Source: Microterricola gilva
Lineage (GTDB): Bacteria; Actinomycetota; Actinomycetes; Actinomycetales; Microbacteriaceae
Direction: 5' to 3'
DNA: 64,000 nucleotides
Assembly: GCF_004217495.1 (NCBI RefSeq)
Contig: NZ_SHLC01000001.1
Coordinates: 2,480,001 to 2,544,000, forward strand
Below, in pieces: positions 25,628 to 40,734 of this stretch. The translations under genes were made by a program, and so were the position numbers. The notes under the pieces were generated by a model. That model searched no databases. It was not told the origin of the DNA and was given only the letters and a program-made list of their open reading frames with translations. How positions within the stretch are numbered: the first letter of the stretch is position 1; the number at the start of each line of letters is the position of its first letter.

Positions 25628-25666
25628 CCCGAACCCCGCTGACGCTCTCTCGTTGCGACCGTTGCG

Positions 25667-26020
25667 ATGCTCGCCCTCTTCACCGCGCTGTGCCTGGCGG
25701 TGAATTTCTACTGGCCGCTCCCTCTCTGGTTCCTGGGCGTCTACGGCGTGGCGAGCATGGTGACTTACATCGCATATGCCATCGACAAATCAGCGGCGAA
25801 AGCGGGGCGTTGGCGCACCTCCGAGAACACTGTTCTCCTACTTGGTCTCCTGGGCGGCTGGCCCGGCTCTCTCATCACCCAGCAGCTGCTCCACCAAAAG
25901 AGGCAGAAGCACAGCTTCCGGGTTGCATTCTGGGCCACCGTCTGGGCCACCGTGTTGGTGTTCGTGGTGGTCTCGACGCCCGTGCTCGCGCGGCTTCAAG
26001 AGGCATCGGACTTGCGCTGA
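25667..26020 (+). CDS. DUF1294 membrane protein
   Basis: A 117-residue protein with three to four hydrophobic segments and the DUF1294 core YAIDKSAAKAGRWRTSENTV, GGWPGSLITQQLLHQKRQKHSF. The same domain is the C-terminal half of the cold-shock fusion at 52997-53698. Here no cold-shock domain precedes it: an in-frame TGA at 25640 closes the frame. No ribosome-binding site is evident before the ATG. It may be a stand-alone member or a truncated copy. Function unknown. Confidence 0.72.
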   Translation: MLALFTALCLAVNFYWPLPLWFLGVYGVASMVTYIAYAIDKSAAKAGRWRTSENTVLLLGLLGGWPGSLITQQLLHQKRQKHSFRVAFWATVWATVLVFVVVSTPVLARLQEASDLR

Positions 26021-26212
26021 ACGAGCCGAACGCAGCTGTCGGTTGCACTGCTGCTGTGGAGACCGAAAGCGCTCCACGAGCTGCGGCTCGAACCTGCTCC
26101 GTTTGGGTTCGGATGCACGGCGGGGTCGCGCTCGTGCCGACTACTTCGCTGTTGCCGCGCGAGGGCGTATCCCCCGTGACGCAGTATGCGTCCGCTGCGA
26201 TTGGGTGCGGGA
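26021..26212. other. Left edge of the defence island, no supportable gene
   Basis: Several frames are open for short distances but none looks like a known or conserved protein. It lies between the DUF1294 gene and the truncated ATPase, so it probably contains the junction of foreign DNA. Confidence 0.4.
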
Positions 26213-26452
26213 TCAGCCGCCCCGGTTCGTCCCGTATGCACGATTACCGTTCTGGAAGCTAGCCTTCTCATCGTTGAAACTGAAGTACGCGTTGAGCGAC
26301 CGAAGGATGGACGACTTCCCCGATCCACTCTGACCGGCTGGCGCAGCGGCGTCACCCAGCTCCAAATCCGCGGAGCCGATCGCCCGAAACTTGTCGATCT
26401 TGAGGCGTGCGAGCCGGTCGCCATCGGGCTGCGGTGGCGGCGTCGGCGGCAT
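26213..26452 (-). pseudogene. Truncated OLD/RecF-like AAA ATPase (N-terminal stump)
   Basis: 79 codons read RLARLKIDKFRAIGSADLEL then GQSGSGKSSILRSLNAYFSF, the N-terminal strand and Walker A of OLD-type or RecF-like ATPases. It stops about 20 residues after Walker A, where a working protein would need some 300 more residues. It begins 18 bases after the stop of the Res gene, so it was the last gene of that operon before deletion. The Walker A Lys and Ser are intact, which suggests recent loss. Confidence 0.72.
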
Positions 26453-26470
26453 TGCTGATGTCAGTGACTA

Positions 26471-29400
26471 TTACGCCCCTACAAGTTGGAGGAGCGAGTC
26501 GTAGCTGTCAACGACGTCGTACTGCACGCCGGAGACGTCTGCGCTGTCGTTCAGCGACGCGAAGAACTTGCGGGCGCACTCTATCTTGGCGTCCTCGATG
26601 CCTTTGAGCTGGAGGGTGGACATCGAGCCCTTGGTCTCGGCGACGAAGTACACGTGCTTGACGCTGCCTTCGCGGAACGCGATCGCCCAGTCGGGGTTGT
26701 AGTCGCCGACAGGTGTCGGGATGAAAAACCCTCGGGGCAGCTTCGAGAACACGACGACCTCGTCGCTAGTGTCGAGTTCGGTGACGAATGAGCGCTCGAC
26801 CTTGGAGTCAGTGACGACGTACTCGTAGACGCTCTTGCTGAGCTTGTCGCCGGCTTTCGACAGGTCCTGAGCAGTCTGGTTCTCGGTGAAGATCGACGAG
26901 TCGTAGCGGTCATTGAGCGCGTCGTACGTGAGGTGCTCGACGATGACTGTCGCCTTCTGCTCGTTGATGAGCCGCGCGGTCTCGGTGATGAACTGCTCGG
27001 CGTTCTGCTTGAACTTCGCGAACGTCGCGGGGTTGATACCGGTGAGGATTGCGGCGCATGTGCGGCGGGTGAGCTGGGTCTTCTCCGCGATTTCGCCGAG
27101 AAGGTCGTACTTGACCGTCGAACCGGCCGACAGCGCCGACTCTTCAACCTTGGTGGTCGTGACCTTGAAGCCCTCGCCCGTCTCGAGCTGTTCGGCCTCG
27201 AGGGAGGCGAGTTGGACGCCCTTCTGCACGACGTACTGCATGACGGTCACCTTCAGCGACTTGTCGAGGGCTTGAATGCAATTCTCGATCAACTCGGCCG
27301 AGTCGAACTCCACCTGGTAGACGGCCTTGTGGTTGATGCGGCCCCAGAGTTCCTGGAACTCGCGCTTGTGGAAGTTCACCTCGTTGAGGGGAACCTTCTT
27401 CGGCTTGCGCCCGTCGGTCGGTGCGGGAATGTCCAGGTGCAGAGAGTCGATCAGCTCGGCGATCTGATAGTGGTACTGGTCGAGGCCGGCGGGCATCGGC
27501 GGCATGTCGATGTCGCCACGGCTGATCCACTTGTCGGTGAGGTGCTGCTCGTAGTCGATGAAGCCGTTCGTCGTGAGCCAGAACTGCAGCTGTTTGGCTT
27601 GGTCGTCTGTGATCGCGACCTTCTCGCCGGTCGTGGGGTTCTCGACGATCTTGCCCGCGAAGAAGTCGGGGCTGGCCTTGCGGGGCCTGGCGCTGAGCGA
27701 CTCGAGGATCTCCTTCTGCAGTGAGGTCACGAATTCCGTGTACGACTCGTCGGTCACGACCGTCAGTTCGTTGATGTCGTGCACAGTGACAGGGTTGTCC
27801 ATTCGCTCACCGTGCTGGTCGACCGAGAGCCGCAAACCACGGCCGATCTCCTGACGCCGCGTCGTGGTGTTGTCGCTCTTCTTGAGCATGCCCATGACGA
27901 AGACGTTCGGGTTGTCCCAGCCCTCCCGTAGCGCAGAGTGCGACCAGATGAACCGTACCGGCTCCTCGAACGACAGGAGTCGCTCTTTGTTCTTCAGGAT
28001 CAGGTCGTAAGCTGCCACGTCATCGGACTGGCCGGCGGTTTCACCCGTCTTCTTCACCGACCCGTCGACTTGGCGCCCGGATTTCTTGTCGATCGAGAAG
28101 TAGCCCTGGTGGGTCTTGCCGACCGGGATCGACGTCAAGTGGGCGCGATACCGCTCCGATGCCTCATCGAGATCCATCTGGCCGAGGTAGTCGGCGACGA
28201 TCGCCTCGTATTCCTCTTCGAAGACACGCGCGTAATCGCCGAGGGTGTCCTCCCGGGTGTAGTCGCGATACTTGGCGACCTCATCGATGAAGAACAGTGA
28301 AAGCGCTTTGATTCCCTGCGCGTACAGCTCCCGCTCCTTGTCGAGGTGCGCGCGGATGACCTCACGGATCTGGATGCGGCGCTTCGCGTCGTCGGTGAGA
28401 TCGTTGGTGACCTCCCCGGCAAAGATGCGTTCGCCGTTCGACAGTTCGATGAAGTCCTGGTTCGCGTCGACGTCGACGACGACGAGATCCTTGTAGGCCT
28501 CGATGCCGTTCGAGATGTCGTGAAGCCTGGACCCTTTCGAGAGGCGCACAGACTTCGGCTTGGGACTCGCACTTCCGGCCGGTTGTACATAGAGCTCGAC
28601 GCGTGCCTTCGGGAAGTCAGCGCCCTTGCCGACCTCGAGCCCGTCGACGTAAAGGTACGCGGTGCTTCCAGGCAGGCCCTTCACCGTGATGCCGCGAACT
28701 GCGATCTTCTTCACGAGCTTCTTGTTATAGGCATCCAACGCATCGAGGCGGTGCACCTTCGTGCGTTCGATTTTGTGCGTCGCCGAGTACCTCAGCGCGA
28801 ACAGGGCGTTGAACAGCCCCAAGGCCGTCAGCGATTTAGATGCCTTCTTGGCGTCGCCCTCGATCTTCTGGGGTTCGTCGATGATGAGGATCGGCCGGTT
28901 CGCGGCGATCACATCGATCGGCTTGCGCGACTGGAAGTCGTCGAGCACCTCGTAGATGCGACGGGCGTCTTTGCCGGTCGCGTTGAAGGCCTGCGTGTTG
29001 ATGATCATCACCTGCACGCCGGCGTCAGAGGAGAATCGCTCGAGCTCGTGAAGCCGCGATGAGTTGTAGACGAATGTGCGGGGCTTCGTGCCGTAGAGCT
29101 GTTGGAAGTGGTCGGCGGTGATGTCGAACGACTTCTTCACACCTTCGCGGATCGCGATGCTCGGAACGACCACGATGTACTTCGACCATCCGTAGCGCTT
29201 GTACAGCTCCATGATCGTCTTGATGTAGACGTACGTCTTGCCAGTTCCGGTCTCCATCTCGATGTCGAGATTGATCGGTGCGGCCGGTGACGTCACGAGG
29301 CTCTTCGACAGCGGCAGTCCGCGAGGCTTCTGGACTACGTGGAGGTTCTCCAAGAGCTGCGGCGCCGACACGCTGATCGCGGAGTTGCGCAGGCCCGCAT

Positions 29401-29542
29401 CCTCGAGAAGCGTCGGCGCACTGGCCTTGCCCGGGTCGATGCGGAACTTGACTCCGTCGGCGAACGGCTGGCCCGCGAAGACGTCCACGACGGCGTCAAC
29501 GGCCTCGGTCTGGTACTGCTGGACCTTGAACTGGAGTTTCAC
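26471..29542 (-). CDS. Type III restriction enzyme Res-like subunit (helicase-nuclease)
   Basis: A 1023-residue ATP-dependent restriction subunit. Residues 1-60 open with LQFKVQQYQTEAVDAVVDVF. Walker A is METGTGKT (96-103) and the DEAD-like box is DEPQ (222-225). WDNPNVFVMGMLKKS and RRQEIGRGLRL are motifs V and VI. The C-terminal PD-(D/E)xK nuclease is visible as Asp951 (NPDWAIAF), Glu969 and Lys971 (VAETKG). The GTG start at 29542 follows AGGG by five bases; the longer frame upstream lacks similarity. Type III Res works with Mod to cut DNA between two unmethylated sites. Here it is separated from mod by an AlbA_2 protein gene. Confidence 0.88.
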   Translation of the reverse strand: MKLQFKVQQYQTEAVDAVVDVFAGQPFADGVKFRIDPGKASAPTLLEDAGLRNSAISVSAPQLLENLHVVQKPRGLPLSKSLVTSPAAPINLDIEMETGTGKTYVYIKTIMELYKRYGWSKYIVVVPSIAIREGVKKSFDITADHFQQLYGTKPRTFVYNSSRLHELERFSSDAGVQVMIINTQAFNATGKDARRIYEVLDDFQSRKPIDVIAANRPILIIDEPQKIEGDAKKASKSLTALGLFNALFALRYSATHKIERTKVHRLDALDAYNKKLVKKIAVRGITVKGLPGSTAYLYVDGLEVGKGADFPKARVELYVQPAGSASPKPKSVRLSKGSRLHDISNGIEAYKDLVVVDVDANQDFIELSNGERIFAGEVTNDLTDDAKRRIQIREVIRAHLDKERELYAQGIKALSLFFIDEVAKYRDYTREDTLGDYARVFEEEYEAIVADYLGQMDLDEASERYRAHLTSIPVGKTHQGYFSIDKKSGRQVDGSVKKTGETAGQSDDVAAYDLILKNKERLLSFEEPVRFIWSHSALREGWDNPNVFVMGMLKKSDNTTTRRQEIGRGLRLSVDQHGERMDNPVTVHDINELTVVTDESYTEFVTSLQKEILESLSARPRKASPDFFAGKIVENPTTGEKVAITDDQAKQLQFWLTTNGFIDYEQHLTDKWISRGDIDMPPMPAGLDQYHYQIAELIDSLHLDIPAPTDGRKPKKVPLNEVNFHKREFQELWGRINHKAVYQVEFDSAELIENCIQALDKSLKVTVMQYVVQKGVQLASLEAEQLETGEGFKVTTTKVEESALSAGSTVKYDLLGEIAEKTQLTRRTCAAILTGINPATFAKFKQNAEQFITETARLINEQKATVIVEHLTYDALNDRYDSSIFTENQTAQDLSKAGDKLSKSVYEYVVTDSKVERSFVTELDTSDEVVVFSKLPRGFFIPTPVGDYNPDWAIAFREGSVKHVYFVAETKGSMSTLQLKGIEDAKIECARKFFASLNDSADVSGVQYDVVDSYDSLLQLVGA

Positions 29543-29687
29543 CGATGCCCTGCTTCGCTTGGATAGATGGCTTGGATATTGATTAGCTTTCGGCGCCGCC
29601 CTATACAAGAAGTTCCCCGTGTTTCCGGGGTTCTCCACGGCATGCGATGTATATCGTTTGTGTAGCTCGCCATTCCCACACACATGT
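29543..29687 (-). promoter_or_regulatory. AT-richer leader before res with small hairpin
   Basis: This 145-base gap is the only sizeable one in the operon. It contains CCCCG-GAAACA-CGGGG (minus strand, about 29608-29627) and AT-rich stretches such as TTGTATAGG. It may give res its own promoter or an attenuating hairpin. Confidence 0.35.
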
Positions 29688-31337
29688 TTAAACAAGCTCC
29701 CAACGGGGATTCTGCTGGGTGCCGACGTTGTGGATCCTTCCGTCCCGCCGCATCTTGCTGAGCAGATTCGTCACTTTGGATCGTTGCTGAGTCGCGTCCA
29801 GTACGTCGGGTAGATACTTGCCCAGAAGCGCATCGATTTCCTTCCGGGACGCTCCACCGTACTGGTTGAGGTAGTCGATGATGAGCTGGGCGAAGTGTGC
29901 GTCGTCTTGTGCGCGCGTGCGGATGTAGTCGGCCTTCCGCTCCGTCATGGCAGCAACGGTTGCACTCACGTGTAGATGGGGGCGTCTCCCCTCGATGAGC
30001 TTGGCTTTGCGTAGCCGTGAGACCGCCTCATCGGTGATCGGCAGTCGCTTCTGCACGCGGTCAAGTGCGAGCACGTCGTCCAGCGGCAAATCGGTACGAA
30101 CCATGAGCAGTCGTGAATATGCCTCGTCGATGACCGCGCCGGAGATAGTCAGCGTGACTTCGCCGGGGTCCGAGAGGTCGTAGTCGGGCAGAGGCAGGAA
30201 CCTTCGAACCTGGTCTTGCACCATCCGGTGGATGCCGTTGCCCATATGGTCGATGAGGTTGAGCTCGGTCATCGCAGCGACCAGGAACGGGTTGCGGTAT
30301 CGGCGAGGAACCTGATCACTGAGCATGTACTCCTCGGGCGTGCGGTCAAAGAACTCGCCGACACTGATGAACTCGACACGATCGACGTGCTCGACAACGA
30401 TCACGCGGGAGTTGCGTCGATAGTCCTGGTGAGCGATGCAGTTGTAGATGGCTTCGAGGAGGCTACGTTCGTCATACTTGCTGATCTCGCGGTAGATCAG
30501 CTCGTTCGGGGGCAGCAGGCGGATCTGAACGTTCCGGATTCGGTTCTTGAGCGACGTGGCGGTCAGCAGGAACGGCAGGTGGAAGTGTTCATAGGCTGAC
30601 TCCTGCCCGACGAGCTTCCAGGTGAGCTCGAGGGGATGAGGGCTGAGGAGATGCTCCGAGGTGCGGTCGCCAAGCAAAATCAGCGCGGCCCTCGTGATGC
30701 CGCCATCGACGGTCAAGCGCGCCTTCTCCAAAAAGACGGCGTCGTTCCACGTTTGGATTTCCTCCGCCAGGCGTGGGTTCCGCTCAGTGAACCCCAAGCG
30801 AGCACGGGCGATCGCCGTCGGATCGAGGTGCTCGATCGTTGCGGATGGGACAACAGCTGCGGTCCAGTCCGTGGCAAGCGTCTGGGCGCGGATCTCGTCG
30901 AGCTTGGACAGATGCAGCGAGTCCAGGCTCTCGCCGCTGCGTGCGTAGTAGTGCCCCTTCCATGCGATGGGGATGCCACGAGGTGCCGGTGGGACCTTCA
31001 GAAGCAGGACCCGGCCGTCGGGATGCGCGAGCTCGAGGATCTCGCTGAAGGTTGCGCTGGGATCGGCATTCTCAGCGATTTGCATCTTCAGACCCTGCAG
31101 CCGTTCCGGCTCTGGGCGGTAGGCAGTGCCGACGACCTTTCGAGTGCTGTTCTTGACACCGAACACCAACCAGCCTGAGTCCGCGCCCCGCAGATTGGCT
31201 TCGTTCGACAGCGCCGAGAAGTACTCGCCGATCTTGTCGGTCGAGTAGCCGTCGCCGGCTTCCTTGAACTCGACAACTTCGTTCTCCCAACCGGCGAGAA
31301 GTCGGTCGAGGAGTGCAGTCATTTCGGCGGGGGTCAT
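29688..31337 (-). CDS. AlbA_2/Schlafen-like ATP-binding protein in RM operon
   Basis: A 549-residue protein. Residues about 15-130 match the Schlafen AlbA_2 domain: NEVVEFKEAGDGYSTDKIGE, then NLRGADSGWLVFGVKN and HYYARSGESLDSL. Residues about 290-400 resemble the GHKL-like HATPase_c_4 domain (DERSLLEAIYNCIAHQDYRR, VEHVDRVEFISVGEF, NPFLVAAMTELNLIDHMGNG). A winged-helix region ends the protein. Such proteins are often labelled transcriptional regulators or Schlafen-like; some act in phage defence. Its start lies 11 bases after the mod stop. Role in this operon is inferred to be regulation or an extra effector. Confidence 0.8.
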   Translation of the reverse strand: MTPAEMTALLDRLLAGWENEVVEFKEAGDGYSTDKIGEYFSALSNEANLRGADSGWLVFGVKNSTRKVVGTAYRPEPERLQGLKMQIAENADPSATFSEILELAHPDGRVLLLKVPPAPRGIPIAWKGHYYARSGESLDSLHLSKLDEIRAQTLATDWTAAVVPSATIEHLDPTAIARARLGFTERNPRLAEEIQTWNDAVFLEKARLTVDGGITRAALILLGDRTSEHLLSPHPLELTWKLVGQESAYEHFHLPFLLTATSLKNRIRNVQIRLLPPNELIYREISKYDERSLLEAIYNCIAHQDYRRNSRVIVVEHVDRVEFISVGEFFDRTPEEYMLSDQVPRRYRNPFLVAAMTELNLIDHMGNGIHRMVQDQVRRFLPLPDYDLSDPGEVTLTISGAVIDEAYSRLLMVRTDLPLDDVLALDRVQKRLPITDEAVSRLRKAKLIEGRRPHLHVSATVAAMTERKADYIRTRAQDDAHFAQLIIDYLNQYGGASRKEIDALLGKYLPDVLDATQQRSKVTNLLSKMRRDGRIHNVGTQQNPRWELV

Positions 31338-31348
31338 AGATGCGGGCC

Positions 31349-33322
31349 TCAGATCGTTCGCAATTCAGTCTCGGGCGACACCTCACGGAAAATCTGCTCG
31401 GCGTTGATCCGTGCAGAGTCGGTGGCGAAGCCCGCGTCCAGGAACACCGCCCGGAGTGGATGCCGCGCTGCGATTGTCTTCACGATGTCGTCGGTGATCT
31501 CGTTGGAGAAGCACGCGATCAGGGCGTCGTCGTCAACAGACAGCAAGCGACTGGATCCGGCCTCCTCGGCAGCGATCGGGGCAGCGAGGTCGAGTCCCCA
31601 GTCGAGGAGTACCTGGAACAACAGATCTTCATCAGTGCGGTCGGGCTTCACGCTGCCGACAGACTCGGTGAGCGCGATTTGTACCAGGTCGTCTGCTGTC
31701 GAGAGCGTGTCGGCCATGTTGGTCGTGTCAACCCTCAGCGCGCGGAAACCGAGATCCAGGGCCGGCCAGTCGCGTCCTGCCTGCTCGTGAATCTGCAGGC
31801 CCGCCCGTCTTATCCGCTCGCGAGCAACCTCTGCGATTGATTCGTACGAATGGTGCTGAATTTCCTCGTCTAGTTGCACGAGGATGTAGCGCCGACGTCC
31901 TCCATCAGCCGCGTTTAGGTCCATCACAGCATGGGATGTGGAGCCCGAGCCACCAAAGAAGTCCAGGATCAGGGCATCGGGCTCCGACTGGGTGACCAGG
32001 TTGATCCAGCGGGCGAGTACACGCTCATCCTTGGGGAAGTCGAAGATCCCCTCTCCAAGCAGCGCCCGGAGCCTGTTGGATGCGGCTCGACGATCGGCGT
32101 AGAACGTTGGCATGACTGTTTGAGTACTCGTCTCATCGAGGTAGCGCTTCATCGTTGGGCGCGTTGTCTCGTCTAGCCCAAACTTCACGCGACCTTCCGA
32201 CAGCAATCGCTTCATGTTTTCTGGCGCGTACGCCCACCCGTTGGGGTGCATGTTGACCGGTTTGCCAGTTACGGGATGGATGATGTCGTACCGCGAGGTC
32301 GACGTTGGCGCAGGTTTGCGCATGTCACCCCCGAAGAACACGACGCCTGGCCGACCGTCGTCGCCATCCACCTGGTTGTAGTGCTCGGAACCCCGTTTTT
32401 CATCGTCGGGAGCGAGTCTTGCCCACCACTGCTTCAGGCGTCGGGTCGCCTCATCCGCGTTGTGGTTCGACTCTTCCCATGCCCGGCGCCCGGCCTCCAG
32501 GATCGCGTCAACACCGGGTTTAGGTTCGCGCCATCGAACATTGTGAAGGGCGGCCATGTCACGTGCATAGATAAGCATGTAGTCGGTCGATGGAGACAAA
32601 AACTGCGCGTCATTTTTGCGTCCGCCTTGCCACACAACATCAGCAATGAAGTTGTCGGCCCCGAAGACGAGATCCATGAGCATGCGAAGGTCGCCGTGCT
32701 CATTATCGTCGATTGCCGCAATGATGACGCCGTCGTCCTTCAGCAGACTCCGCGCAAGCTTGAGCCGCGGATACATCATACTCAGCCAGTCGGAGTGGAA
32801 CCGGCCATTCGACTCAGGGTTCGCGACGAGGCGGTCACCGGTCTCCGACTTCTGGCCCGACCGGGCGAGGTACTCGGCGCTCGACTCGGCGAAGTCGTCT
32901 TCGTAGACGAAGTCGTTGCCCGTGTTGTAGGGCGGGTCGATGTAGATCAGCTTGACCTTGCCGAGGTAGGACTCCTGAAGCAGTTTCAGCGCGTCGAGGT
33001 TGTCTCCCTCGATGAAGAGGTTCTTCGTGGTGTCGAAGTCGACGGACTCCTCGCGCACCGGGCGCAGTGTCTTCGCGATAGGGGCGTTCGCCGCGAACGC
33101 GGCGGCACGCTTCCCGGGCCAGTCGAGCTGGTAGCGCTCCTGCGGCCCCTCGACGATGTGGTCGGCCAGTTCCTGGCGGAGCAGATCGAAGTTGATGGCG
33201 CGGCGCGGTGCACCACTCTCATCCACGGACTCGGTAACTACGGTCGGGAAGAGTTCGGCGAGCTTGTCGATGTTCACTTGGGTGAGGTCGGGGGATGTCA
33301 TCCGGAGCTTCTCCATGGTCAC
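31349..33322 (-). CDS. Type III-like DNA methyltransferase Mod
   Basis: A 657-residue beta-class amino-methyltransferase (N6-adenine or N4-cytosine). Motif IV DPPYNTGND (residues 129-137) precedes motif I DFFGGSGSTSHAV (near 450), the order of Type III Mod proteins. The central region holds the target-recognition part (KRYLDETSTQTVMPTFYADR). GTG start and the DUF4391 stop overlap as GTGA (33319-33322), so translation is coupled; an ATG six bases further in is an alternative. Together with Res it should form a Type III-like restriction-modification pair. The recognition site cannot be read from sequence. Confidence 0.9.
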   Translation of the reverse strand: MTMEKLRMTSPDLTQVNIDKLAELFPTVVTESVDESGAPRRAINFDLLRQELADHIVEGPQERYQLDWPGKRAAAFAANAPIAKTLRPVREESVDFDTTKNLFIEGDNLDALKLLQESYLGKVKLIYIDPPYNTGNDFVYEDDFAESSAEYLARSGQKSETGDRLVANPESNGRFHSDWLSMMYPRLKLARSLLKDDGVIIAAIDDNEHGDLRMLMDLVFGADNFIADVVWQGGRKNDAQFLSPSTDYMLIYARDMAALHNVRWREPKPGVDAILEAGRRAWEESNHNADEATRRLKQWWARLAPDDEKRGSEHYNQVDGDDGRPGVVFFGGDMRKPAPTSTSRYDIIHPVTGKPVNMHPNGWAYAPENMKRLLSEGRVKFGLDETTRPTMKRYLDETSTQTVMPTFYADRRAASNRLRALLGEGIFDFPKDERVLARWINLVTQSEPDALILDFFGGSGSTSHAVMDLNAADGGRRRYILVQLDEEIQHHSYESIAEVARERIRRAGLQIHEQAGRDWPALDLGFRALRVDTTNMADTLSTADDLVQIALTESVGSVKPDRTDEDLLFQVLLDWGLDLAAPIAAEEAGSSRLLSVDDDALIACFSNEITDDIVKTIAARHPLRAVFLDAGFATDSARINAEQIFREVSPETELRTI

Positions 33323-33984
33323 TTCTGCTCTTCCAGTTCTGCTTGCTTCATCTTCAGCATTCGTCGCAGCTCCATCTTTCGATTGAGCTGCGGCTCTGAG
33401 CGGATCTTGCGTTCGAGTCCAGCGACTTCTCGCTGGAGCCGTCGCACCACTTCCAGTCTCTCGGCAACATCAGACACTTCCTCACCCGGTCGCACGTCGA
33501 TGGGAGTAAGTGGGGCGAGGAGCTCCGCGTAGAGAGCAGGCAAGGAGATCGCCGTCGGCAACGCCGAGCGCTCGGCATCTGCGGGCATCCATCGCGTGGA
33601 GTAATAGCCGTTCACCATTGGCGTTCGGGCGCCGCGCGTTTTGTGGGCTGCGACCATGCGGACTTCACGGCGCCCGGTTCTCTCTCGGGAGATCTCGAAG
33701 ATGATCGGATTGGGCACCGCCTTGTCGATGGCGGTCAGCACGGCGTCGGCGACATCGTCGGCCTTGCTGTCGATCTCAAATATCTCGATCTCGGGCACCG
33801 CCGTCGTGCCCGTGAGGTTGATCGTCTCTTCGGCGAGCTTGTGGGTCCACGTGATCCGCTGCACGTCCGAGACGAACTTCTCGCGCACTGCCGAGCTGAC
33901 CCAACCATACTCGTAGAACTTCTCCTTCGGCACGCGTGCGCCGAAGCGCGCACCGGTCGGCCACTTATACAGGATGTCACTCAC
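33319..33984 (-). CDS. DUF4391 protein
   Basis: A 221-residue protein with the DUF4391 signature: YKWPTGARFGARVPKEKFYE, WTHKLAEETINLTGTTAVPEIEIFEI and a C-terminal coiled coil (VVRRLQREVAGLERKIR, KMELRRMLKMKQAELEEQ). The family is known only from genes lying between a helicase and a methyltransferase in restriction-like loci; its biochemical role is not known to me. Its central beta region (PIIFEISRERTGRREVRMVA) could be nuclease-like but I see no confident catalytic motif. It overlaps both neighbours by four bases (GTGA), so all three are translationally coupled. Confidence 0.82.
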   Translation of the reverse strand: MSDILYKWPTGARFGARVPKEKFYEYGWVSSAVREKFVSDVQRITWTHKLAEETINLTGTTAVPEIEIFEIDSKADDVADAVLTAIDKAVPNPIIFEISRERTGRREVRMVAAHKTRGARTPMVNGYYSTRWMPADAERSALPTAISLPALYAELLAPLTPIDVRPGEEVSDVAERLEVVRRLQREVAGLERKIRSEPQLNRKMELRRMLKMKQAELEEQK

Positions 33985-36900
33985 CAGGCATCCGTTGGAT
34001 CGACGACCGCGATGAACGCGATCAACTCGAAGTCATCGAGCCCCGCGATCTGCTGTGTGAGCGCGGTCGTGTGCCCACCGCGGAACAGACTGTCGATGTC
34101 GCGTTGCTCGGTGATGTCGATCATCGAGTGAATGGCATCCGTCAGCAGCGCCGAGTACTTGCCCATGTCTGCGCCCTCGCGGGTGGCGTCGTTGAAGACG
34201 CGTGTGACCTCGGCCACGGGCTCATCATGCGGGCGAGACCCGGCACGGACGAGGTCGAGCAGCCGCTTCGCCTCGGTGTGGTCGGCGATGACGTCGCCGT
34301 TGTCGTCGACGTAGACGAGGTAGTGCGGGTGCAGGCGGTTGCCGCGGTTCACCGCAGGATCGGCGTTGACGTTCTTCAGCGCGAAGATCACGCCAGGGAG
34401 GAGACCGATGGAGAGGTCTGCGGGGATGACGGCGTGCAAACCCCGCGGTGCTGTTACGATGTCGCCGTACTCGTTCATGTAGGCGAGCAGGTCCATCCGG
34501 AAGTCGTTGAGGCCGAGATCGGTGATCGAGACACCCGCGCGTACGTCTTCGAGCTCGATGTTCTCGCCCTGCAGCTTGCGAAGCTGCTCCTTGCGGAACG
34601 CAGCATCCGAGTCCTCGGGGTTTAGCACGTTGTCATCGGCAGAGCCGGCGAGATCAGCAATCACCATCCGGTTCTCGACGCGCTCCTTGAGGTTGATGTA
34701 CTCATCGAGGGAGATATCGGGCCAGAAGTTGACGAGCTGAATGACTTCGTTCGTCGATCCGATGCGGTCGATTCGACCGAACCTCTGGATTATCCTCACC
34801 GGGTTCCAGTGGATGTCGTAGTTGATGAGGTAGTCGCAGTCCTGAAGGTTCTGACCTTCGCTGATCACATCCGTGCCGATCAGCACGTCGACGTCTCGCG
34901 TCTCGTTGGGCATCGTGAGGTGACGCTGCTTGGACCGGGGCGAGAACATCGACATGATCTGTTGGAAGTCGAAGCCCGTACCGAGCGTCGACTTCGCACC
35001 GTGGCTGCCGCCCGTGATGACGGCGCTCTCCAGCCCCGCCTGCTGGAGCGCCGGCGCGAGCTCGCGGTAGAGGTAGTTCGCGGTGTCGGCGAAGGCGGAG
35101 AAGATCAGCACCTTGCGGTTGTCGGTGTTAAGCGGATGCTCCGCCTTCTGCTGGACCAGCTGATGAAGTTTACGGAGCTTGAGGTCATGCGCCGGCGCGA
35201 CCTTCCGCATCTCGTCGATCAGCTCGCGCAGAGTCTCGCGGTCGTTCCACAGGTCTCGCTGCCAGGAGGCGACATCGATGTCATCGATGTCGATCCTGAT
35301 CTTCTCGCCGAACGACAGCGCCTCGACATTGGCGTCGTCCTCATCGTCGAGGTCGAAGTCGAGATCGTCCAGGTCTCGGATCTCGGGAATAGCCCCCGCA
35401 TGGTTGCTCAGTCGCGTGAGAGTGCTGCCTGTGGCATCCTCGATCTTCGCAAGCGTGAGTCGGAAGGCCTCAACTGAACTCTCGAGCCTCTTCAGCAGGT
35501 TCACTGTCATGAGCTTCTTCAGGCCCTCTTCGCGACCCTTCTGGCCGAGGTTCGAGCGGGCGTTGCCGGTCGTGACGTTGTAGAGGTCCTCGTACTTGCT
35601 GATGCGGCTTGGGAAGACGTATCGGAGCGGGGTGTAGACCGCGAGCTCGAGGGCTTGCAGCTGCTCGAAGATCTCGTTGAACGAGGGAACGTCGGCAAGG
35701 TCGGTGAGTGGTTCGTGGATGGACGCCGGTGGCAGGCGCTTCGGGAAGGCGCCGATCTCACTCGTGTCGTAGAACGCCTGGATGTGCTTTCGGGACCGCG
35801 CGATGGTGACCGCGTCGAGCAGTTCGAAGAAGTCGAAGTCGAGCATCTGCAAGATGCGATCGGCGGTGCGCTCCTCAGTGGGCAGCTTCGACCACTCGTT
35901 GAACACCGTCTGGGCATCGCGGAACACCCGCTCGACCGATGTCGACAGCGTGAGCTTCGCGGCGAGTGTGTCGCTTTCACCCTCGTACGCCAGCTGCAGC
36001 TGGTTCTTGAGATCGTTGAATCGGTTGTTCACCGGCGTCGCCGACAGCATCAGCACCTTGGTCTTCACGCCTTCGCGGATGACCTGCCGCATGAGGCGCT
36101 GATAACGCGATTCCTTCTCTTCGGCGTAGTCGGCGTTGCGGAAGTTGTGTGACTCGTCGATCACGACGAGGTCGTAGTTGCCCCAGTTGATGCGGTCCAA
36201 GCGGAGGCCAAGTGATTCACCGCGTGTGCGGGAGAGATCGGTGTGCGCAAGGACGTCGTAATTGAATCGGTCGCTCGAGAAGATGTTCGTCGTGAGGTTG
36301 GCGTTGTAATTCGTCCAGTTCTCGGCCAGCTTTTTCGGAGCCAGAACCAGGACGGACTTATTGCGCAGCTCGTAGTACTTGATGACCGCCAGCGCGGTGA
36401 ATGTTTTTCCGAGCCCGACGCTGTCGGCAAGGATGCAGCCGTTGTACGTCTCGAGCTTGTTGATGATGCCGGTCGCGGCATCCCGCTGGAAGTTGTACAG
36501 GCTCTGCCAGACCTTAGTTTCCTGATAGCCGGTGCGGTCGTTCGGGAGCACATCTTCGCTGATTTCGTCGAGGAACTCGGCGAAGAGGTTGTAGAGGATG
36601 AGGAAGTAGATGCGGGCCGGCGAATTCTCGGCGTACACGCTCGCGATGTGGTCGTGCACGGCCTGTGTCACGTCGTTGAGTTGACCGGGGCTTGCCCAGA
36701 TCTGATCGAACAGATTGAGGAAGCTGCTCGTCTCGGGGGCGCTCTCGAACTTCGTGACCATGTTGGACACGGCGTTGCCACGCTCGTAGCCGAGATCGGC
36801 CGTCGTGAAGCCCTGAAGCGGCATGTACGCGGCGCGGTCATCGACCACGGCGAACTGCTGCATCTGGTGACCGCTGGCATTGGTTCGGAACGTGACCTTC

Positions 36901-37235
36901 TCACGCACCCACGCCGCGCACTCTCGAGCGATCGCGCGCTGCGTCAGCTTGTTGCGGAGGCGAACCTCGAACTCTGACCCGTAGAGGGATGACTCGGCGT
37001 GTGGGATGAAGAACTCTCGGCGGTCCTTGCGGAGCTTGTCTGTCACCTGGCCGTTGCTGAACGACGGCGATGTGAAGATGAATTCCAGTTCCTCGACATG
37101 CTCAAGCTCTTTGCGCAACGCCTCGAATGCGAAGATTGAGAAGGTCGATGCGGCGATGCGCACCTTCGAGCCGCGGCCGAACTCGGACTTGAGGTCGTCG
37201 CCGAGAAGATCGGAGACGTTGTCGATGATCCGCAT
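33981..37235 (-). CDS. SNF2-like helicase with N-terminal PLD-like domain
   Basis: A 1084-residue ATPase. Residues 1-200 resemble the phospholipase D-like domain found before such helicases (VRIAASTFSIFAFEALRKEL, HAESSLYGSEFEVRLRNKLT). The expected HxK-x4-D reads HQMQQFAVVDD, so the nuclease centre is probably degenerate. The helicase core has ADSVGLGKT (about 268-276), APKKLAENW, DLVVIDESHNFRN (near 359), LSATPVNNRFND, TDVISEGQNLQDCDYLINYD and RFGRIDRIGS. It starts four bases after the HTH gene stop and overlaps DUF4391. It may translocate on DNA for the restriction complex. Confidence 0.88.
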   Translation of the reverse strand: MRIIDNVSDLLGDDLKSEFGRGSKVRIAASTFSIFAFEALRKELEHVEELEFIFTSPSFSNGQVTDKLRKDRREFFIPHAESSLYGSEFEVRLRNKLTQRAIARECAAWVREKVTFRTNASGHQMQQFAVVDDRAAYMPLQGFTTADLGYERGNAVSNMVTKFESAPETSSFLNLFDQIWASPGQLNDVTQAVHDHIASVYAENSPARIYFLILYNLFAEFLDEISEDVLPNDRTGYQETKVWQSLYNFQRDAATGIINKLETYNGCILADSVGLGKTFTALAVIKYYELRNKSVLVLAPKKLAENWTNYNANLTTNIFSSDRFNYDVLAHTDLSRTRGESLGLRLDRINWGNYDLVVIDESHNFRNADYAEEKESRYQRLMRQVIREGVKTKVLMLSATPVNNRFNDLKNQLQLAYEGESDTLAAKLTLSTSVERVFRDAQTVFNEWSKLPTEERTADRILQMLDFDFFELLDAVTIARSRKHIQAFYDTSEIGAFPKRLPPASIHEPLTDLADVPSFNEIFEQLQALELAVYTPLRYVFPSRISKYEDLYNVTTGNARSNLGQKGREEGLKKLMTVNLLKRLESSVEAFRLTLAKIEDATGSTLTRLSNHAGAIPEIRDLDDLDFDLDDEDDANVEALSFGEKIRIDIDDIDVASWQRDLWNDRETLRELIDEMRKVAPAHDLKLRKLHQLVQQKAEHPLNTDNRKVLIFSAFADTANYLYRELAPALQQAGLESAVITGGSHGAKSTLGTGFDFQQIMSMFSPRSKQRHLTMPNETRDVDVLIGTDVISEGQNLQDCDYLINYDIHWNPVRIIQRFGRIDRIGSTNEVIQLVNFWPDISLDEYINLKERVENRMVIADLAGSADDNVLNPEDSDAAFRKEQLRKLQGENIELEDVRAGVSITDLGLNDFRMDLLAYMNEYGDIVTAPRGLHAVIPADLSIGLLPGVIFALKNVNADPAVNRGNRLHPHYLVYVDDNGDVIADHTEAKRLLDLVRAGSRPHDEPVAEVTRVFNDATREGADMGKYSALLTDAIHSMIDITEQRDIDSLFRGGHTTALTQQIAGLDDFELIAFIAVVDPTDAW

Positions 37236-37238
37236 TTT

Positions 37239-37427
37239 CTACGCAGCACCCCCGGCGCTGCTGCCACCACTACGCACCCACGCGTCCACCTCACTCGCCT
37301 GGAACTTCCACAGGCGCCCGACCTTGTGCGCCGGCATCCCCTTTTCAGCAATCCAGGCATAAATCGAGTCCTTCGTGACGCCCAGATGCTCGGCGATGTC
37401 GTCGGCGGACAGCCACGGCTCAGACAT
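37239..37427 (-). CDS. Small excisionase/MerR-type helix-turn-helix protein
   Basis: A 62-residue DNA-binding protein of the HTH_17 type: WLSADDIAEHLGVTKDSIYA followed by KVGRLWKFQASEVDAWVR. It is the first gene of the island operon, three bases before the helicase. GGGGG precedes the ATG at 37427 by five bases; an ATG at 37439 is possible. Proteins of this kind act as excisionases or as small repressors. Position at the operon head, next to the inverted repeat at 37450-37463, favours autoregulation. Confidence 0.85.
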   Translation of the reverse strand: MSEPWLSADDIAEHLGVTKDSIYAWIAEKGMPAHKVGRLWKFQASEVDAWVRSGGSSAGGAA

Positions 37428-37449
37428 ACAGGCCCCCATGCGGATCGAA

Positions 37450-37463
37450 CCGGATTCTTCCGG
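37450..37463 (-). promoter_or_regulatory. Candidate operator of the island operon
   Basis: CCGGATTCTTCCGG has perfect 5-bp arms (CCGGA/TCCGG) and lies between the putative -10 box and the HTH start. Confidence 0.45.
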
Positions 37464-37472
37464 GTATGCCCG

Positions 37473-37478
37473 ATCCTA
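37473..37478 (-). promoter_or_regulatory. Putative -10 box of the island operon
   Basis: TAGGAT on the minus strand, about 45 bases before the HTH start. Confidence 0.4.
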
Positions 37479-37749
37479 GCTGCACCCGGCCATGACCTTG
37501 GTTGCATTCGGCTGACGGGTGGGTGACCGCCGAGCGCGGTGTGGCACCCGACACCACCCCAGAGGCAACACCCCCGGCTCACTGAACTCTTCGGCGAGCC
37601 CGAAAGCCGTTAACGGGCGCGCAGATTCAGCGCCCGGCGGCATGGCACTCTGGCGAGCGCCTTCAGCAACGACGAAAACGCAACGGAAACGCAGACTCGT
37701 CCCCGAACTTCCTTGAGGGCGATCCCGTTTGCGGGCCGTTCTGCGACGA
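37479..37749. other. Gene-free part of the island upstream region
   Basis: No coding sequence or repeat that I can support. A minus-strand frame at 37610-37858 is open only because it reads through the hairpin at 37750. Confidence 0.4.
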
Positions 37750-37788
37750 GTTTCGCGAACAGCCCCTCAGTTGGGCTGTTCGCGAAAC
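37750..37788. repeat. Long perfect hairpin in the island
   Basis: GTTTCGCGAACAGCCC (37750-37765) and GGGCTGTTCGCGAAAC (37773-37788) are perfect 16-bp arms with a 7-base loop. Each arm also contains the near-palindrome TTTCGCGAA. No T-tract follows on either strand. Confidence 0.8.
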
Positions 37789-37944
37789 GCGTCAGGGCGC
37801 GAATCACAAGCCACCACCCAACGCGTTTTCCTTCACATCGAGCGCCCTTTTCCTCCACATTTGTCGAGGATCTGCTTACCCTGCAGGAAATACTGGCAGC
37901 GGTGACCGGTCACCGCAGGTCAGGGAGTCAACCGAAGCTGCAGC

Positions 37945-38090
37945 AGTCCACCCAACTGGAACCGCAGCGCGGCATCGACGACGAACGCCACCAACTCTTG
38001 TGATTCGCCGTCACTCTTGCCGCCGAGCGAGGAGTAGGAGCTGAGCACCTCGCCCTGTTCGCCGACGCGAGCCGCCGTCGCGCTTCCGCG
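37945..38090 (-). pseudogene. Relic of a jetC (Wadjet SMC-like) gene, C-terminal signature region
   Basis: About 48 codons read SSYSSLGGKSDGESQELVAF then VVDAALRFQLG, matching STYSSLGGKSGGESQELVAF of the complete jetC at 46754-50251 almost residue for residue. The nucleotide match is also close. The match fades at both ends, and no Walker A or Walker B remains. It therefore derives from a second, largely deleted Wadjet locus or a duplication. Confidence 0.82.
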
Positions 38091-38109
38091 CTCCGAGTGG
38101 CACCAGCAT

Positions 38110-38685
38110 TCAAAGAATGAGTCCGACACGGTCGCACTCGGTGTTCCACGAGCATGCTCCCCGCGCAGCGGCCCTATCGACTTGATTGCCCTTCACTGCG
38201 CTCGCCGCGGACCTCCCGTGATCGTGTGCTTCTTCCGGGCTTGCGCACTCTACCCACGCGAGGTCGCACTCCGCGATCCACTGGTTGACGATTGCGACCT
38301 GCGCCGGTGATAGCACTGACGGTCGCGATCTAGCCGTAGCTCGATCGACTCCGAGCAGCCGAACGGCGACGCTTGCTCGAAACGTGGTCCGACTCAAATC
38401 GTGACCGATCGCAAGATGTGCCTGGAGCCGGCCACGCAATCCTTTCTTGCCCCGCGCCTCGCCCACGTAGATTGGCTCGTCGTCGCGAAACCATACATAG
38501 ACGCCCGGCGCAGAAGGGACGTCGGATAGTTCCACCGCGTCAGCTGCGCAGAGCATCTCGCTCCGCACACGCGCCCAATCCGCACCTCGGTCATCGAGAG
38601 GCTCGCCGGTCTCACCATTGGCTTGGTCAAGCGCATCATGGATTGCACCCAATTCGTTGGCGTCCTCAGCGCCGTAGATCTGCAA
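38110..38685 (-). CDS. GIY-YIG domain protein
   Basis: A 191-residue protein. The GIY-YIG core is seen at APGVYVWFRDDEPIYVGEAR (residues 59-78) with the conserved Arg in GLRGRLQAHL (82-91). The domain normally ends soon after WVECASPEEA; here the frame then runs through about 47 residues of low-complexity sequence toward the jetC relic. The C-terminus may therefore be replaced by unrelated sequence. Catalytic residues look mostly intact, so it could be a nuclease or an inactive recognition domain. It lies 186 bases downstream of the DUF262 gene on the same strand. Confidence 0.7.
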   Translation of the reverse strand: MQIYGAEDANELGAIHDALDQANGETGEPLDDRGADWARVRSEMLCAADAVELSDVPSAPGVYVWFRDDEPIYVGEARGKKGLRGRLQAHLAIGHDLSRTTFRASVAVRLLGVDRATARSRPSVLSPAQVAIVNQWIAECDLAWVECASPEEAHDHGRSAASAVKGNQVDRAAARGACSWNTECDRVGLIL

Positions 38686-38871
38686 GTCCGAGAGAGTGAG
38701 TTCTTCGCGCGTGGCTAGAACCTATCGGAAGCGATCATGCGACGCAGGTGGCTGCGTAGAAGCCGGACTCGACAGCGGGGAGCGCCCTCGTTGGTTCTGC
38801 CGTTGCTCCGTGCGGAACGGGGGGGGCAGCCCAAAAGGCTGGAGAGTGCCGGGCGCCGATCGGGTGTGCTC

Positions 38872-40734
38872 TCATTGCGCAAAGAGCTGATTTCCAGCAA
38901 TCGCGGGTTCACGGACCTGATCGAGGCTCGGCCTGTCGCCGGCGCACAGAAGCAACATTGCTCCCCCCACCAGCTTTACCCGCTCATCGAGGAACACGTT
39001 CAAATCGGATCCAACCGCCTCGCGGAGGGCTTCGCCTTCGAGGTGGCCGTATGGGCCTGCTGCCGCAAGTTCGGCGTACGGGACCATGTGCGTTGCAAGC
39101 CGACGCGAAATCTCGGAGGCATTCCCTATGGCGCCATCAGCCCTCGCCTCGAGGTAACGGACCGGGTCCAGCCGCCCGATCGTGCGGTTTGTACGCCAGG
39201 TGATTAGCGCGCAATTCAGGGCGAGATCAGAATCAATTCCCGCATCCTCAAGCAGCTTGTCAGGGAAGAGGTGATGGTACTCACGGTGGAGAACCGTCTC
39301 CGCCGTGATGGTTCGGGAATCGGCAAAGTCCTCGGCCCCAAACTTGAGGGATGCCGCGAGAATTGCTCGCGCTAGCACACGTTTGCTTGCGGGCCAGCCA
39401 GCTGACCTCAGTTGTTCCGCGGTAGGCAAAGGAAAGAGCGTTCGATCAAGGACTGCAACTCCAGAACCATCGAACGTGCTTCGGCCGCCCGCTGATGCTT
39501 CCAGCGCTTCGGCTAGCGCTTTGAAGTCACTGTATGCCCGGCTGGCAACGGAATTCTCATAGCGGGAGGTGAAGAATGAGGACCATAAGTAGGATCTGAG
39601 TACTTTCTCCGCGTTGGCCACCTCATCTCCGTAGTCCGGAATGAGCACGTAGAGAGCTGCGATTACTGGCAGCGGGGCTGCGGTCGGAAGTCGCTTCGCA
39701 TCGTAGATGTGCGCGTCCTCCAGCAACGAGACGGTCCGGCGCAGCCCTCGCTCCAGCTTGTCCCAGTTGGTGATCATTTCAGCCATGTCCATGTCTAGCT
39801 CGCCGCGCGCATTGGGAACCTTTCCCTGCAATAGCGCACTAGCTTGCAAAACGAGATCGCCAACGTTGCCGTACCGCGAGATGCCGTCGACGCGCCTGCC
39901 CAGGTCGACCAGCTTGTCGTGAAGCAGCTCGCCCGTCGCGTTCTCCACTTCGGCAACGATCACGTCGTAAGTACTTAGCGGCTTGCTATTGGTGTTCATT
40001 TTGATGAAGACGTCAAGGGCGACGTGCTTCGGCGTTGCGGCTTTGAGCAGGAGATAGGGGATGTTGTAGTTGCTCACGATCCCGCGGAGCGGTTGGAGAT
40101 AGACATCCTTCAGTTCATCTCTGCGCGCCACATGCTCGCCTTGGAGCTGTCGAAACTCGGAAAGCTCCGTCACGTCATCGCCTGGGGCGAGGTGCGCGGT
40201 AGCGGCTTCAGCCCACGCGATCGACTCACCGGACGCGTCAGGTCGGAGCAATTGGACCGGGATCAGTCCGCGTTCGAGGCACTGGCGGGGGTCATCCACC
40301 CAAAGAGGCATGCGGCGCCCGTTCTTGGTCCACCGCGTGACAAGACGCACTCCAAGTTCCTCGTCATCGTTACTGGGATCCGCGTCAAGCTGGGGCACGT
40401 GTACGAAGAACGTCACATCCTCGTAGTTGTTGTTGAACGCTCGCCAAAGAGCGGTTAACCTCTGCTGCCCATCAAGCAAATGCTCGTTCGGCTTCACGTC
40501 GAGGTTCGGCGCCGTGACCAACGGCCGCGAAACAAAACGCTCTTCGTCGCCCACTTCAAGCACGAGCGCGACCCCCAGCGGCAAGTCGCGGATGACGGTG
40601 TCGAGCATGCTCATCACTCGACCACGGTCCCAGGCCTCAGCGCGCTGAAAACTGGGCAGCACAATTCGGCCGCCCTCAATCTGACTAAACCAGTCCTTGA
40701 GCGTTCGGTCCTGTGCGCGCGTCGATGTGCTCAT
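38872..40734 (-). CDS. DUF262 (GmrSD-like) protein with C-terminal HNH-like region
   Basis: A 620-residue protein. The N-terminal DUF262/ParB-like nucleotide-binding domain has LPSFQRAEAWDRGRV and the diagnostic LLDGQQRLTALWRAF (DGQQR at 88-92). The C-terminal third has HREYHHLFPDKLLEDAG followed by LNCALITWRTNRTIGRLDP, which fits the DUF1524/HNH His-Asn pattern. This is the layout of single-chain GmrSD-type enzymes, which restrict modified phage DNA using NTP. It sits in a defence island next to a GIY-YIG gene. A type IV restriction role is inferred. Confidence 0.82.
   Translation of the reverse strand: MSTSTRAQDRTLKDWFSQIEGGRIVLPSFQRAEAWDRGRVMSMLDTVIRDLPLGVALVLEVGDEERFVSRPLVTAPNLDVKPNEHLLDGQQRLTALWRAFNNNYEDVTFFVHVPQLDADPSNDDEELGVRLVTRWTKNGRRMPLWVDDPRQCLERGLIPVQLLRPDASGESIAWAEAATAHLAPGDDVTELSEFRQLQGEHVARRDELKDVYLQPLRGIVSNYNIPYLLLKAATPKHVALDVFIKMNTNSKPLSTYDVIVAEVENATGELLHDKLVDLGRRVDGISRYGNVGDLVLQASALLQGKVPNARGELDMDMAEMITNWDKLERGLRRTVSLLEDAHIYDAKRLPTAAPLPVIAALYVLIPDYGDEVANAEKVLRSYLWSSFFTSRYENSVASRAYSDFKALAEALEASAGGRSTFDGSGVAVLDRTLFPLPTAEQLRSAGWPASKRVLARAILAASLKFGAEDFADSRTITAETVLHREYHHLFPDKLLEDAGIDSDLALNCALITWRTNRTIGRLDPVRYLEARADGAIGNASEISRRLATHMVPYAELAAAGPYGHLEGEALREAVGSDLNVFLDERVKLVGGAMLLLCAGDRPSLDQVREPAIAGNQLFAQ

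What the first reader, a model, noticed from the sequence alone, without database searches (positions are those of the whole stretch)
26213..37478. Six-gene Type III-like restriction operon with extra helicase, DUF4391 and AlbA_2 genes
The sequence shows one tight minus-strand operon: HTH, PLD-like/SNF2 helicase, DUF4391, Mod, AlbA_2 ATP-binding protein, Res, then an OLD-like ATPase stump. The junctions are 3 bp, GTGA, GTGA, 11 bp, 145 bp and 18 bp. Ordinary Type III systems need only Mod and Res. A second helicase and two uncharacterised proteins, coupled by stop-start overlaps, suggest one larger machine. I know no accepted name for this exact set. It is less GC-rich than its flanks, has a candidate operator and promoter, and lies among other defence genes.
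Basis: partly seen in the sequence, partly recalled or inferred. Interest (0 to 1): 0.78.

Follow-up and report, generated by a model that had tools for sequence, protein, structure and literature searches.

The report
Extended Type III restriction-modification defence operon
A bacterial anti-virus gene cluster joins a classical DNA-cutting restriction pair to a conserved motor protein and an uncharacterised partner, and carries one gene in a slot that other bacteria fill with different defence genes.

Summary
Mod and Res are EcoP15I homologues with intact catalytic motifs. Helicase, DUF4391, Mod and Res form a conserved core: of 68 non-redundant helicase-bearing loci with at least 5.5 kb downstream, DUF4391 is present in 63 and all four genes in order in 57. 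In a helicase-seeded subset DUF4391 is in 52 of 58 loci. In four of the remaining six the helicase is followed by one large Type IIG-like methyltransferase, three of these with a DUF4391-like N-terminal domain. AlbA_2 is not core: it occurs in 5 of 60 loci. Two positions, before and after Mod, hold changing cargo, including known defence genes (IetS, HEC-01, AbiP2, GmrSD, OLD types). The PLD-nuclease label and the sigma-70 promoter were not borne out; the operator is undecided. I found no name for this set in the libraries and papers searched. Best reading: a Type III system with a regular SNF2 helicase-DUF4391 module and swappable defence cargo. The module's biochemical role is inferred.

The parts
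37239..37427 (-). Small HTH (excisionase/MAD1-like) protein, 62 aa, probable regulator
   Evidence: HTH_17 53.5 bits; NCBIfam MAD1 72.2 bits, cut-off 80; similar HTH upstream in 20 of 86 loci
33981..37235 (-). SNF2/RapA-like helicase, 1084 aa; core gene 1
   Evidence: Helicase_C and SNF2 domains; PADLOC C3a139 406 bits; ADSVGLGKT, IDESH and QRFGR[IV]DR each in 49 of 49
33319..33984 (-). DUF4391 protein, 221 aa; core gene 2
   Evidence: PF14335 E 1.2e-48; AlphaFold2 pLDDT 88.7, no Foldseek match at E<=0.001 in PDB or BFVD
31349..33322 (-). Type III Mod (DPPY methyltransferase), 657 aa; core gene 3; central region variable between relatives
   Evidence: PADLOC MTase_III 701 bits; EcoP15I Mod E 7.8e-66; against 7 Mod sequences of 5 loci, residues 1-200 54-96%, 201-450 6-50%, 451-600 34-64% identical per 50-residue block
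29688..31337 (-). SLFN_AlbA_2 + HATPase_c_4 protein, 549 aa; cargo in the Mod-Res slot
   Evidence: Pfam; homologues in the same slot in L008, L040, L029, L134, and in L142 after the Mod of L043
26471..29542 (-). Type III Res (SF2 helicase + PD-(D/E)XK endonuclease), 1023 aa; core gene 4
   Evidence: PADLOC REase_III 1016 bits; RE_endonuc; EcoP15I Res E 4.1e-64; Walker A, DEPQ, PDW and E[TS]K in 49 of 49
26213..26452 (-). 79-aa remnant with a Walker A-like stretch, probably of an AAA/SMC-type ATPase
   Evidence: Sequence, SMC_N E 0.0071, below cut-off; no match to the 16 post-Res ORFs of relatives compared
25628..40921 (.). Variable locus that holds the operon
   Evidence: In genus relatives G003 and G001 the flanks align with 3.3 and 5.1 kb of other DNA between them
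38872..40734 (-). GmrSD_N/DUF262 protein next to the operon
   Evidence: GmrSD_N 69.5 bits

Best explanation
It is a Type III restriction-modification system extended by a conserved SNF2-family helicase and a DUF4391 protein, with an exchangeable extra defence gene (here AlbA_2) between mod and res. Mod recognises an asymmetric site through its central region and methylates adenine; Mod-Res cuts DNA with unmethylated sites (known for EcoP15I; inferred here from homology and intact motifs). DUF4391 is the adapter that ties the helicase to the methyltransferase: its gene is coupled to the helicase gene, and a related domain is fused to the methyltransferase in a sister architecture. The helicase would translocate on DNA held by Mod, to clear bound proteins or to license cutting (inferred). 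The AlbA_2/ATPase protein is a separate second-line effector that shares the operon (inferred).
For: Conserved order helicase-DUF4391-Mod-Res: 56 of 68 non-redundant loci with >=5.5 kb downstream as labelled, 57 with L037. Helicase-seeded loci: DUF4391 on the same strand in 51 of 58 as labelled, 52 with L137. Actinomycetota: 13 of 396 genomes carry DUF4391, 12 of the 13 with the helicase adjacent; all 11 genomes with helicase >=350 bits carry DUF4391. Coupling: the helicase-DUF4391 junction overlaps in 37 of 56, 28 of them by exactly 4 nt (6 overlaps beyond 30 nt are probably start-codon choices); Mod-Res <=50 nt in 41 of 41 direct junctions. Gene distances correlate, Pearson 0.70-0.94 over 49 loci, 0 of 999 permutations reaching each. 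DUF4391-like domain in Type IIG-like methyltransferases behind the same helicase: Pfam E 8.6e-5 to 1e-3, below the curated cut-off, in 3 of 4; profile score 34.8-40.6 against at most 21.9 in 46 unrelated segments. Slot occupancy changes 14 and 13 times on the helicase tree, shuffled means 16.4 and 16.4. Variable central Mod region.
Against: No functional data. Eleven of the 68 loci still lack the full set (broken or cut loci, the Type IIG-like architecture, and L118 with helicase and Res only). G435 has DUF4391-Mod-Res without the helicase, and G401 has Res 133 kb away. In the same sample 11 genomes have Res >=200 bits without DUF4391. The locus pool is partly DUF4391-seeded, and one search kept the best 80 of 104 helicase hits. 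DUF4391 has no fold match, so 'adapter' rests on context and on a weak fusion signal (hhalign probability 71%, 20% with the other alignment). Correlated distances can also come from shared descent. Slot B occupancy and AlbA_2 are somewhat clustered on the tree (38 and 4 of 1000 shuffles at or below the observed changes).
Confidence: 0.68

Rival explanations
1. Ordinary Type III system plus an independent helicase-DUF4391 defence unit: the two pairs travel together as neighbours but work separately.
For: Mod-Res pairs without DUF4391 occur in the same sample (L143, L144, L146-L149, L152). Some cargo genes belong to systems that are self-contained elsewhere (IetS, HEC-01).
Against: Order and coupling across many loci, helicase-Res distance correlation 0.94, no helicase >=350 bits without DUF4391 in 396 genomes, and the fusion-like architecture.
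Confidence: 0.17
2. One large machine in which AlbA_2 is also an essential subunit.
For: This AlbA_2 subfamily keeps to the slot between Mod and Res in 5 of 60 loci, from Actinomycetota to Alphaproteobacteria plasmids, with fewer changes on the tree than most shuffles. Of 5 plasmid records with a relative at E<=1e-20, 3 have it in this operon; one (Sinorhizobium) is in pieces without labelled core genes within 12 kb; one (Hymenobacter) was not opened.
Against: 55 of 60 loci lack it. The nearest helicase relative of the window in the tree (L004, 81%) has no AlbA_2. 31 of 59 loci have no slot ORF.
Confidence: 0.07
3. A DISARM- or ARMADA-like system that has exchanged its methyltransferase for Type III Mod-Res: it blocks phage DNA by helicase action, with Res as an add-on.
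For: Helicase similarity to DrmD (127.5 bits PADLOC, 159.6 NCBIfam); a sister architecture with a large Eco57I-type methyltransferase; ARMADA pairs a RapA/Snf2-type helicase with a PglX-like methyltransferase (PMC12458937, passages).
Against: The NCBIfam DrmD cut-off is 610. No match to the MZB zinc-binding domain (PF09369) in the window's whole genome; that DrmB and YprA-type helicases carry it is recalled. Res has intact nuclease motifs in 49 of 49.
Confidence: 0.08

Closest known systems
Type III restriction-modification (EcoP15I)
   Same: Mod and Res match the EcoP15I subunits; DPPY and PD-(D/E)XK motifs present.
   Different: Adds a SNF2 helicase and DUF4391 upstream of Mod, plus cargo slots.
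DISARM (DrmD-DrmMI pair; composition recalled)
   Same: SNF2 helicase paired with an adenine methyltransferase.
   Different: Helicase far below the DrmD cut-off; the nine proteins scanned gave no DrmB or DrmC in the hits shown, and DrmA only as a 79-bit cross-hit of the helicase.
ARMADA (ArmA-ArmB)
   Same: RapA/Snf2-type helicase next to a methyltransferase (PMC12458937, passages).
   Different: No MZB domain (recalled as typical of YprA-type helicases) in the genome; Type III Mod instead of a PglX-like methyltransferase.
MADS
   Same: HTH resembles MAD1 (72.2 bits, cut-off 80).
   Different: None of the other operon proteins shows a MADS model in the hits shown (PADLOC lists of helicase and Mod are cut at 25).
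Type I systems with an embedded guard gene (EcoprrI with PrrC; recalled, from no call)
   Same: A second defence gene inside a restriction operon.
   Different: Here Type III, with two slots and many alternative cargoes.

Membership tests
Type III restriction-modification | Mod with DPPY motif, homologous to EcoP15I Mod | tested here: met
   E 7.8e-66; DPPYN in 49 of 49
Type III restriction-modification | Res with SF2 ATPase and PD-(D/E)XK nuclease | tested here: met
Type III restriction-modification | Two inverted unmethylated asymmetric sites needed for cutting; one-strand methylation | not testable with these tools
   Needs biochemistry or methylome data
Type III restriction-modification | Variable target recognition region in Mod | tested here: met
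   Residues 201-450: 6-50% identity per block; residues 1-200: 54-96% (7 sequences of 5 loci)
DISARM | DrmA, DrmB and DrmC present | tested here: not met
   Nine operon and neighbour proteins: no DrmB/DrmC in the hits shown, DrmA only as a cross-hit of the helicase (lists cut at 25); no MZB domain in the genome. The rest of the window was not scanned with Drm models
DISARM | DrmD helicase above curated cut-off | tested here: not met
   159.6 bits against 610
MADS | MAD1-MAD8 set | tested here: not met
   Only a MAD1-like HTH, 72.2 against 80; a 23-bit MAD6 hit (cut-off 460) in the flanking NERD protein; nine proteins scanned
PLD/HKD helicase (PADLOC C3a139 label) | HxK...D motif in the N-terminal domain | tested here: not met
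   Pattern in 2 of 49, both aligned with window residue 167 in a region without the motif in the others; no Pfam PLD hit. Fold not tested
ARMADA | YprA-family helicase ArmC | tested here: inconclusive
   No ArmC model used; no MZB domain in the genome

The most novel reading that the evidence does not exclude
Helicase-DUF4391 is a general plug-in for DNA methyltransferases: it attaches to Type III Mod-Res in one architecture and is partly fused to a Type IIG-like enzyme in another, and turns them into a multi-layer immune chassis whose two fixed slots hold interchangeable second-line systems (IetAS-like, HEC-01, AbiP2, GmrSD, AlbA_2, pAgo) that the restriction core regulates or triggers.
Probability: 0.3. 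Interest if true: 0.82.

Novelty: new variant of a known kind. Interest (0 to 1): 0.62.

Why it matters
EcoP15I, the model of Type III, is a two-gene system (passage in PMC12707154). If a whole branch regularly uses an SNF2 motor and a protein of unknown function, its restriction mechanism need not be the one studied. DUF4391 gets a testable role. The slots give a natural catalogue of proteins that live inside restriction operons; 10 of 34 slot ORFs scanned had no Pfam hit at E<=0.01. Bare four-gene versions sit on E. coli plasmids (two opened). A DNA search with one of these DUF4391 genes matched 10 of 5426 E. coli genomes, 9 of the 10 places on plasmids, a lower bound as more distant copies are missed. 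Tests are therefore practical in laboratory E. coli.

Tried and rejected
Helicase as a PLD nuclease: not supported; the fold itself was not tested. Stub as a remnant of the post-Res ORFs of relatives: no match to any of 16. DUF4391 by Foldseek: no match at E<=0.001 in PDB or BFVD, which does not prove a new fold. DUF4391 profile against PDB sequences: none at E<=5. Sigma-70 promoter upstream of the HTH: none found; one terminator-like site, 0.8 expected. Operator: only a tandem 11-nt direct repeat, undecided. tRNA and Rfam matches in the window: none. The genome-contig scan used a single protein and returned one locus. AlbA_2 profile in viral contigs: one distant locus without labelled core genes. 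Helicase structure: I submitted the single sequence instead of an alignment; mean pLDDT 33, unusable. Paper searches: DUF4391 is in one paper, in a table, and 'restriction' does not occur in its main text; 'SNF2 helicase' with 'type III restriction-modification' 0 papers; AlbA_2 with 'type III restriction-modification' 0 papers; searches showed no description of this gene set in what was listed (one search listed 20 of 175 papers and 8 of 11,381, so these two say little). A figure legend of PMC11090510 (passage) lists both SWI2/SNF2 ATPases and Mod/Res among abbreviations; the figure is not held and I could not tell whether it shows this set. Papers were seen as listings and passages only; none was read whole.
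Full report
OBSERVATION. The operon stands as described: minus strand, HTH 37239-37427, SNF2 helicase 33981-37235, DUF4391 33319-33984, Mod 31349-33322, AlbA_2 29688-31337, Res 26471-29542, stub 26213-26452, with the stated junctions. Mod and Res are Type III proteins (701 and 1016 bits) related to EcoP15I. Not borne out: the PLD-nuclease label and a sigma-70 promoter. Undecided: the operator (a tandem 11-nt direct repeat at 37672-37693). The OLD-like label of the stub rests on a weak SMC_N hit.

THE PLACE. The operon lies in a lower-G+C stretch, 25628-40921 (0.612 against 0.69). Genus relatives G003 and G001 share the left flank up to 25627 and resume at 40922 and 40972, with 3.3 and 5.1 kb of other DNA between. 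In G001 that DNA encodes a GmrSD/HEC-06-like protein and a DruM2-like cytosine methylase. G004 shares the left flank (to 25631) but its NERD-gene match lies on the other side. G002 has only two fragments of the left flanking gene and was not compared. The locus looks like an exchange site.

RECURRENCE IN GENOMES. DUF4391 is rare: 2 of 59 relatives and 13 of 396 Actinomycetota genomes, own genome included. Of those 13, 12 have the helicase adjacent and G435 does not. Mod follows in 13 of 13. Res is within the stretch examined in 11: G320 is on a 4.2-kb contig, and in G401 Res lies 133 kb away with an 87-aa Mod piece beside it. From the other side, Res above 800 bits occurs in 14 genomes, 12 with DUF4391; at 200 bits or more in 23 genomes, 12 with DUF4391. 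Helicase at 350 bits or more occurs in 11 genomes, all with DUF4391; the next genome scores 262 bits. These thresholds were set after seeing the scores.

RECURRENCE ON PLASMIDS AND VIRAL CONTIGS. Thirty-eight plasmid records hold DUF4391. I opened 15 of the 38. All 15 have the helicase upstream and Mod downstream (helicase in pieces in L044; Mod in pieces in L044 and L040). Res is seen in 14, and for L043 across the record start in L142. Viral contigs gave 19 DUF4391 loci and 77 helicase loci, the latter from the best 80 of 104 hits. Pooled and reduced at 95% helicase identity there are 89 loci. With at least 5.5 kb downstream there are 68: DUF4391 labelled in 62, all four genes in 56. A search of the raw frames adds DUF4391 in L037, giving 63 and 57. 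Mod was labelled in 63 and Res in 58, one of the Mod labels (L132) being a 26-bit hit. The pool is partly DUF4391-seeded. The helicase-seeded part gives DUF4391 on the same strand in 51 of 58 loci with at least 800 nt downstream, and L137 makes 52. The six others are L118 (helicase-Res only), L120, L121, L123, L132 and L125 (cut by the contig end). IMG/VR contigs may include host DNA.

SISTER ARCHITECTURES. In L120, L121, L123 and L132 the helicase is followed, directly or after one ORF, by a 1200-1560-aa protein with an Eco57I methylase domain (PADLOC calls that of L120 Type IIG). Three of the four have a PF14335 hit below the curated cut-off at about residues 105-228. Profile comparison with DUF4391 gives E 3.7e-5, probability 71%, and E 0.0012, 20%, with the other alignment. 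The score in the script is 34.8, against at most 21.9 in 46 unrelated segments. Separately, of nine Res loci opened in genomes without DUF4391 (two more not opened), three (G429, G353, G132) have a DrmD-type SNF2 helicase (PADLOC DrmD 581-703 bits) before Mod, with one extra ORF between in G132. Pairing of an SNF2 helicase with Type III Mod-Res thus appears in more than one helicase lineage.

CORE AGAINST CARGO. In 59 four-gene loci, slot A (before Mod) is filled in 19, slot B (between Mod and Res) in 18, both in 9, and neither in 31, by an ORF call of 90 aa or more. Slot A here includes two loci (L127, L130) with an ORF between helicase and DUF4391. Some small ORFs may be spurious. Tandem Mod genes (L026, L029, L056, L130) were counted as core. 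I scanned 34 slot ORFs with Pfam (18) plus two post-Res ORFs, and 18 slot ORFs plus one post-Res ORF with PADLOC. Found: AlbA_2 (window, L040/L008, L029, L043/L142, L134, which has a second AlbA_2-domain protein in slot A), IetS (818 bits) with an adjacent AAA ATPase, and RhuM (L050/L102), HEC-01A/B (L009), OLD-type (L007, L030), AbiP2 reverse transcriptase and RhuM (L106), GmrSD types (L124, L135), AbiJ_NTD4 (L034), UvrD-type (L005, L058; L009 by clustering), PLDc_2 (L049), Abi_C (L097), DUF2971 (L122, L127), Bro-N (L046, L127), and pAgo (879 bits) after DUF4391 in L133, where no Mod or complete Res was seen. Ten of the 34 had no Pfam hit at E<=0.01: two in L088 and one each in L051, L031, L060, L063, L038, L097, L130 and L056. 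On a 60-locus helicase tree (quick method), occupancy changes 14 (A) and 13 (B) times; shuffled means are 16.4 and 16.4, with 99 and 38 of 1000 shuffles at or below the observed value. AlbA_2 (5 of 60) changes 3 times, shuffled mean 4.9, 4 of 1000 at or below. So turnover is high, with some clustering for slot B and AlbA_2. The four core genes have correlated distances (r 0.70-0.94, 49 loci), which shared descent alone could also give.

MECHANISM. Shown: motif integrity, a variable central Mod region as expected of a target recognition domain, co-directional coupled genes. Inferred: Mod-Res acts as in EcoP15I; DUF4391 bridges helicase and methyltransferase; the helicase translocates on target DNA; AlbA_2 is an independent second-line effector. 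The DUF4391 model (pLDDT 88.7) is an alpha/beta domain followed by two long C-terminal helices (170-196 and 200-220), which would suit a docking role (inference).

KNOWN SYSTEMS. By the features tested it belongs to Type III, and not to DISARM or MADS. PADLOC calls its Mod and Res Type III and its helicase 'C3a139 HKD+Snf2', and has no hit for DUF4391 at E<=0.01. The paper library, open-licence papers only, gave no description of the set in what was listed. One figure legend (PMC11090510) names both SWI2/SNF2 and Mod/Res and could not be resolved. REBASE and DefenseFinder were not available, so an existing name is possible.

VERDICT. A real, widespread and little-described extension of Type III restriction-modification, with a four-gene core and exchangeable cargo.

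Noticed in passing
L120:5449-9522, L121:12383-15982, L123:3336-8015, L132:10532-14452: The same helicase family is followed by a large Eco57I-type methyltransferase, three of four with a weak N-terminal DUF4391-like hit.
   Followed up: partly
L143 (G429), L144 (G353), L146 (G132): Type III mod-res preceded by a DrmD-type SNF2 helicase without DUF4391.
   Followed up: partly
L050:10714-17043 and L106:13964-18553: Known defence genes (IetS with an AAA ATPase; AbiP2 reverse transcriptase) and RhuM genes sit between the core genes.
   Followed up: partly
L133:4442-6493: A prokaryotic Argonaute (PADLOC pAgo 879 bits) directly follows helicase-DUF4391; no Mod seen, only a 177-aa Res piece upstream.
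   Followed up: no
L145 and L030 (G401): Operon apparently split: helicase-DUF4391-OLD-Mod and Res about 133 kb apart, with an 87-aa Mod piece beside Res.
   Followed up: partly
L088:14106-16872; L051:12617-13285: Cargo proteins without any Pfam or PADLOC hit: a 527/394-aa pair, and a recurrent ~224-aa slot B family (5 loci, L051 and L052 with near-identical helicases).
   Followed up: no
window 25628-40921: Exchange locus between a carboxypeptidase gene and a NERD gene; two genus relatives hold other, partly defence-related DNA there.
   Followed up: partly
window 37672-37693 and 29557-29578: Short direct repeats: a tandem 11-nt pair upstream of the HTH gene and a 9-nt pair just before Res; no chance estimate made.
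   Followed up: no
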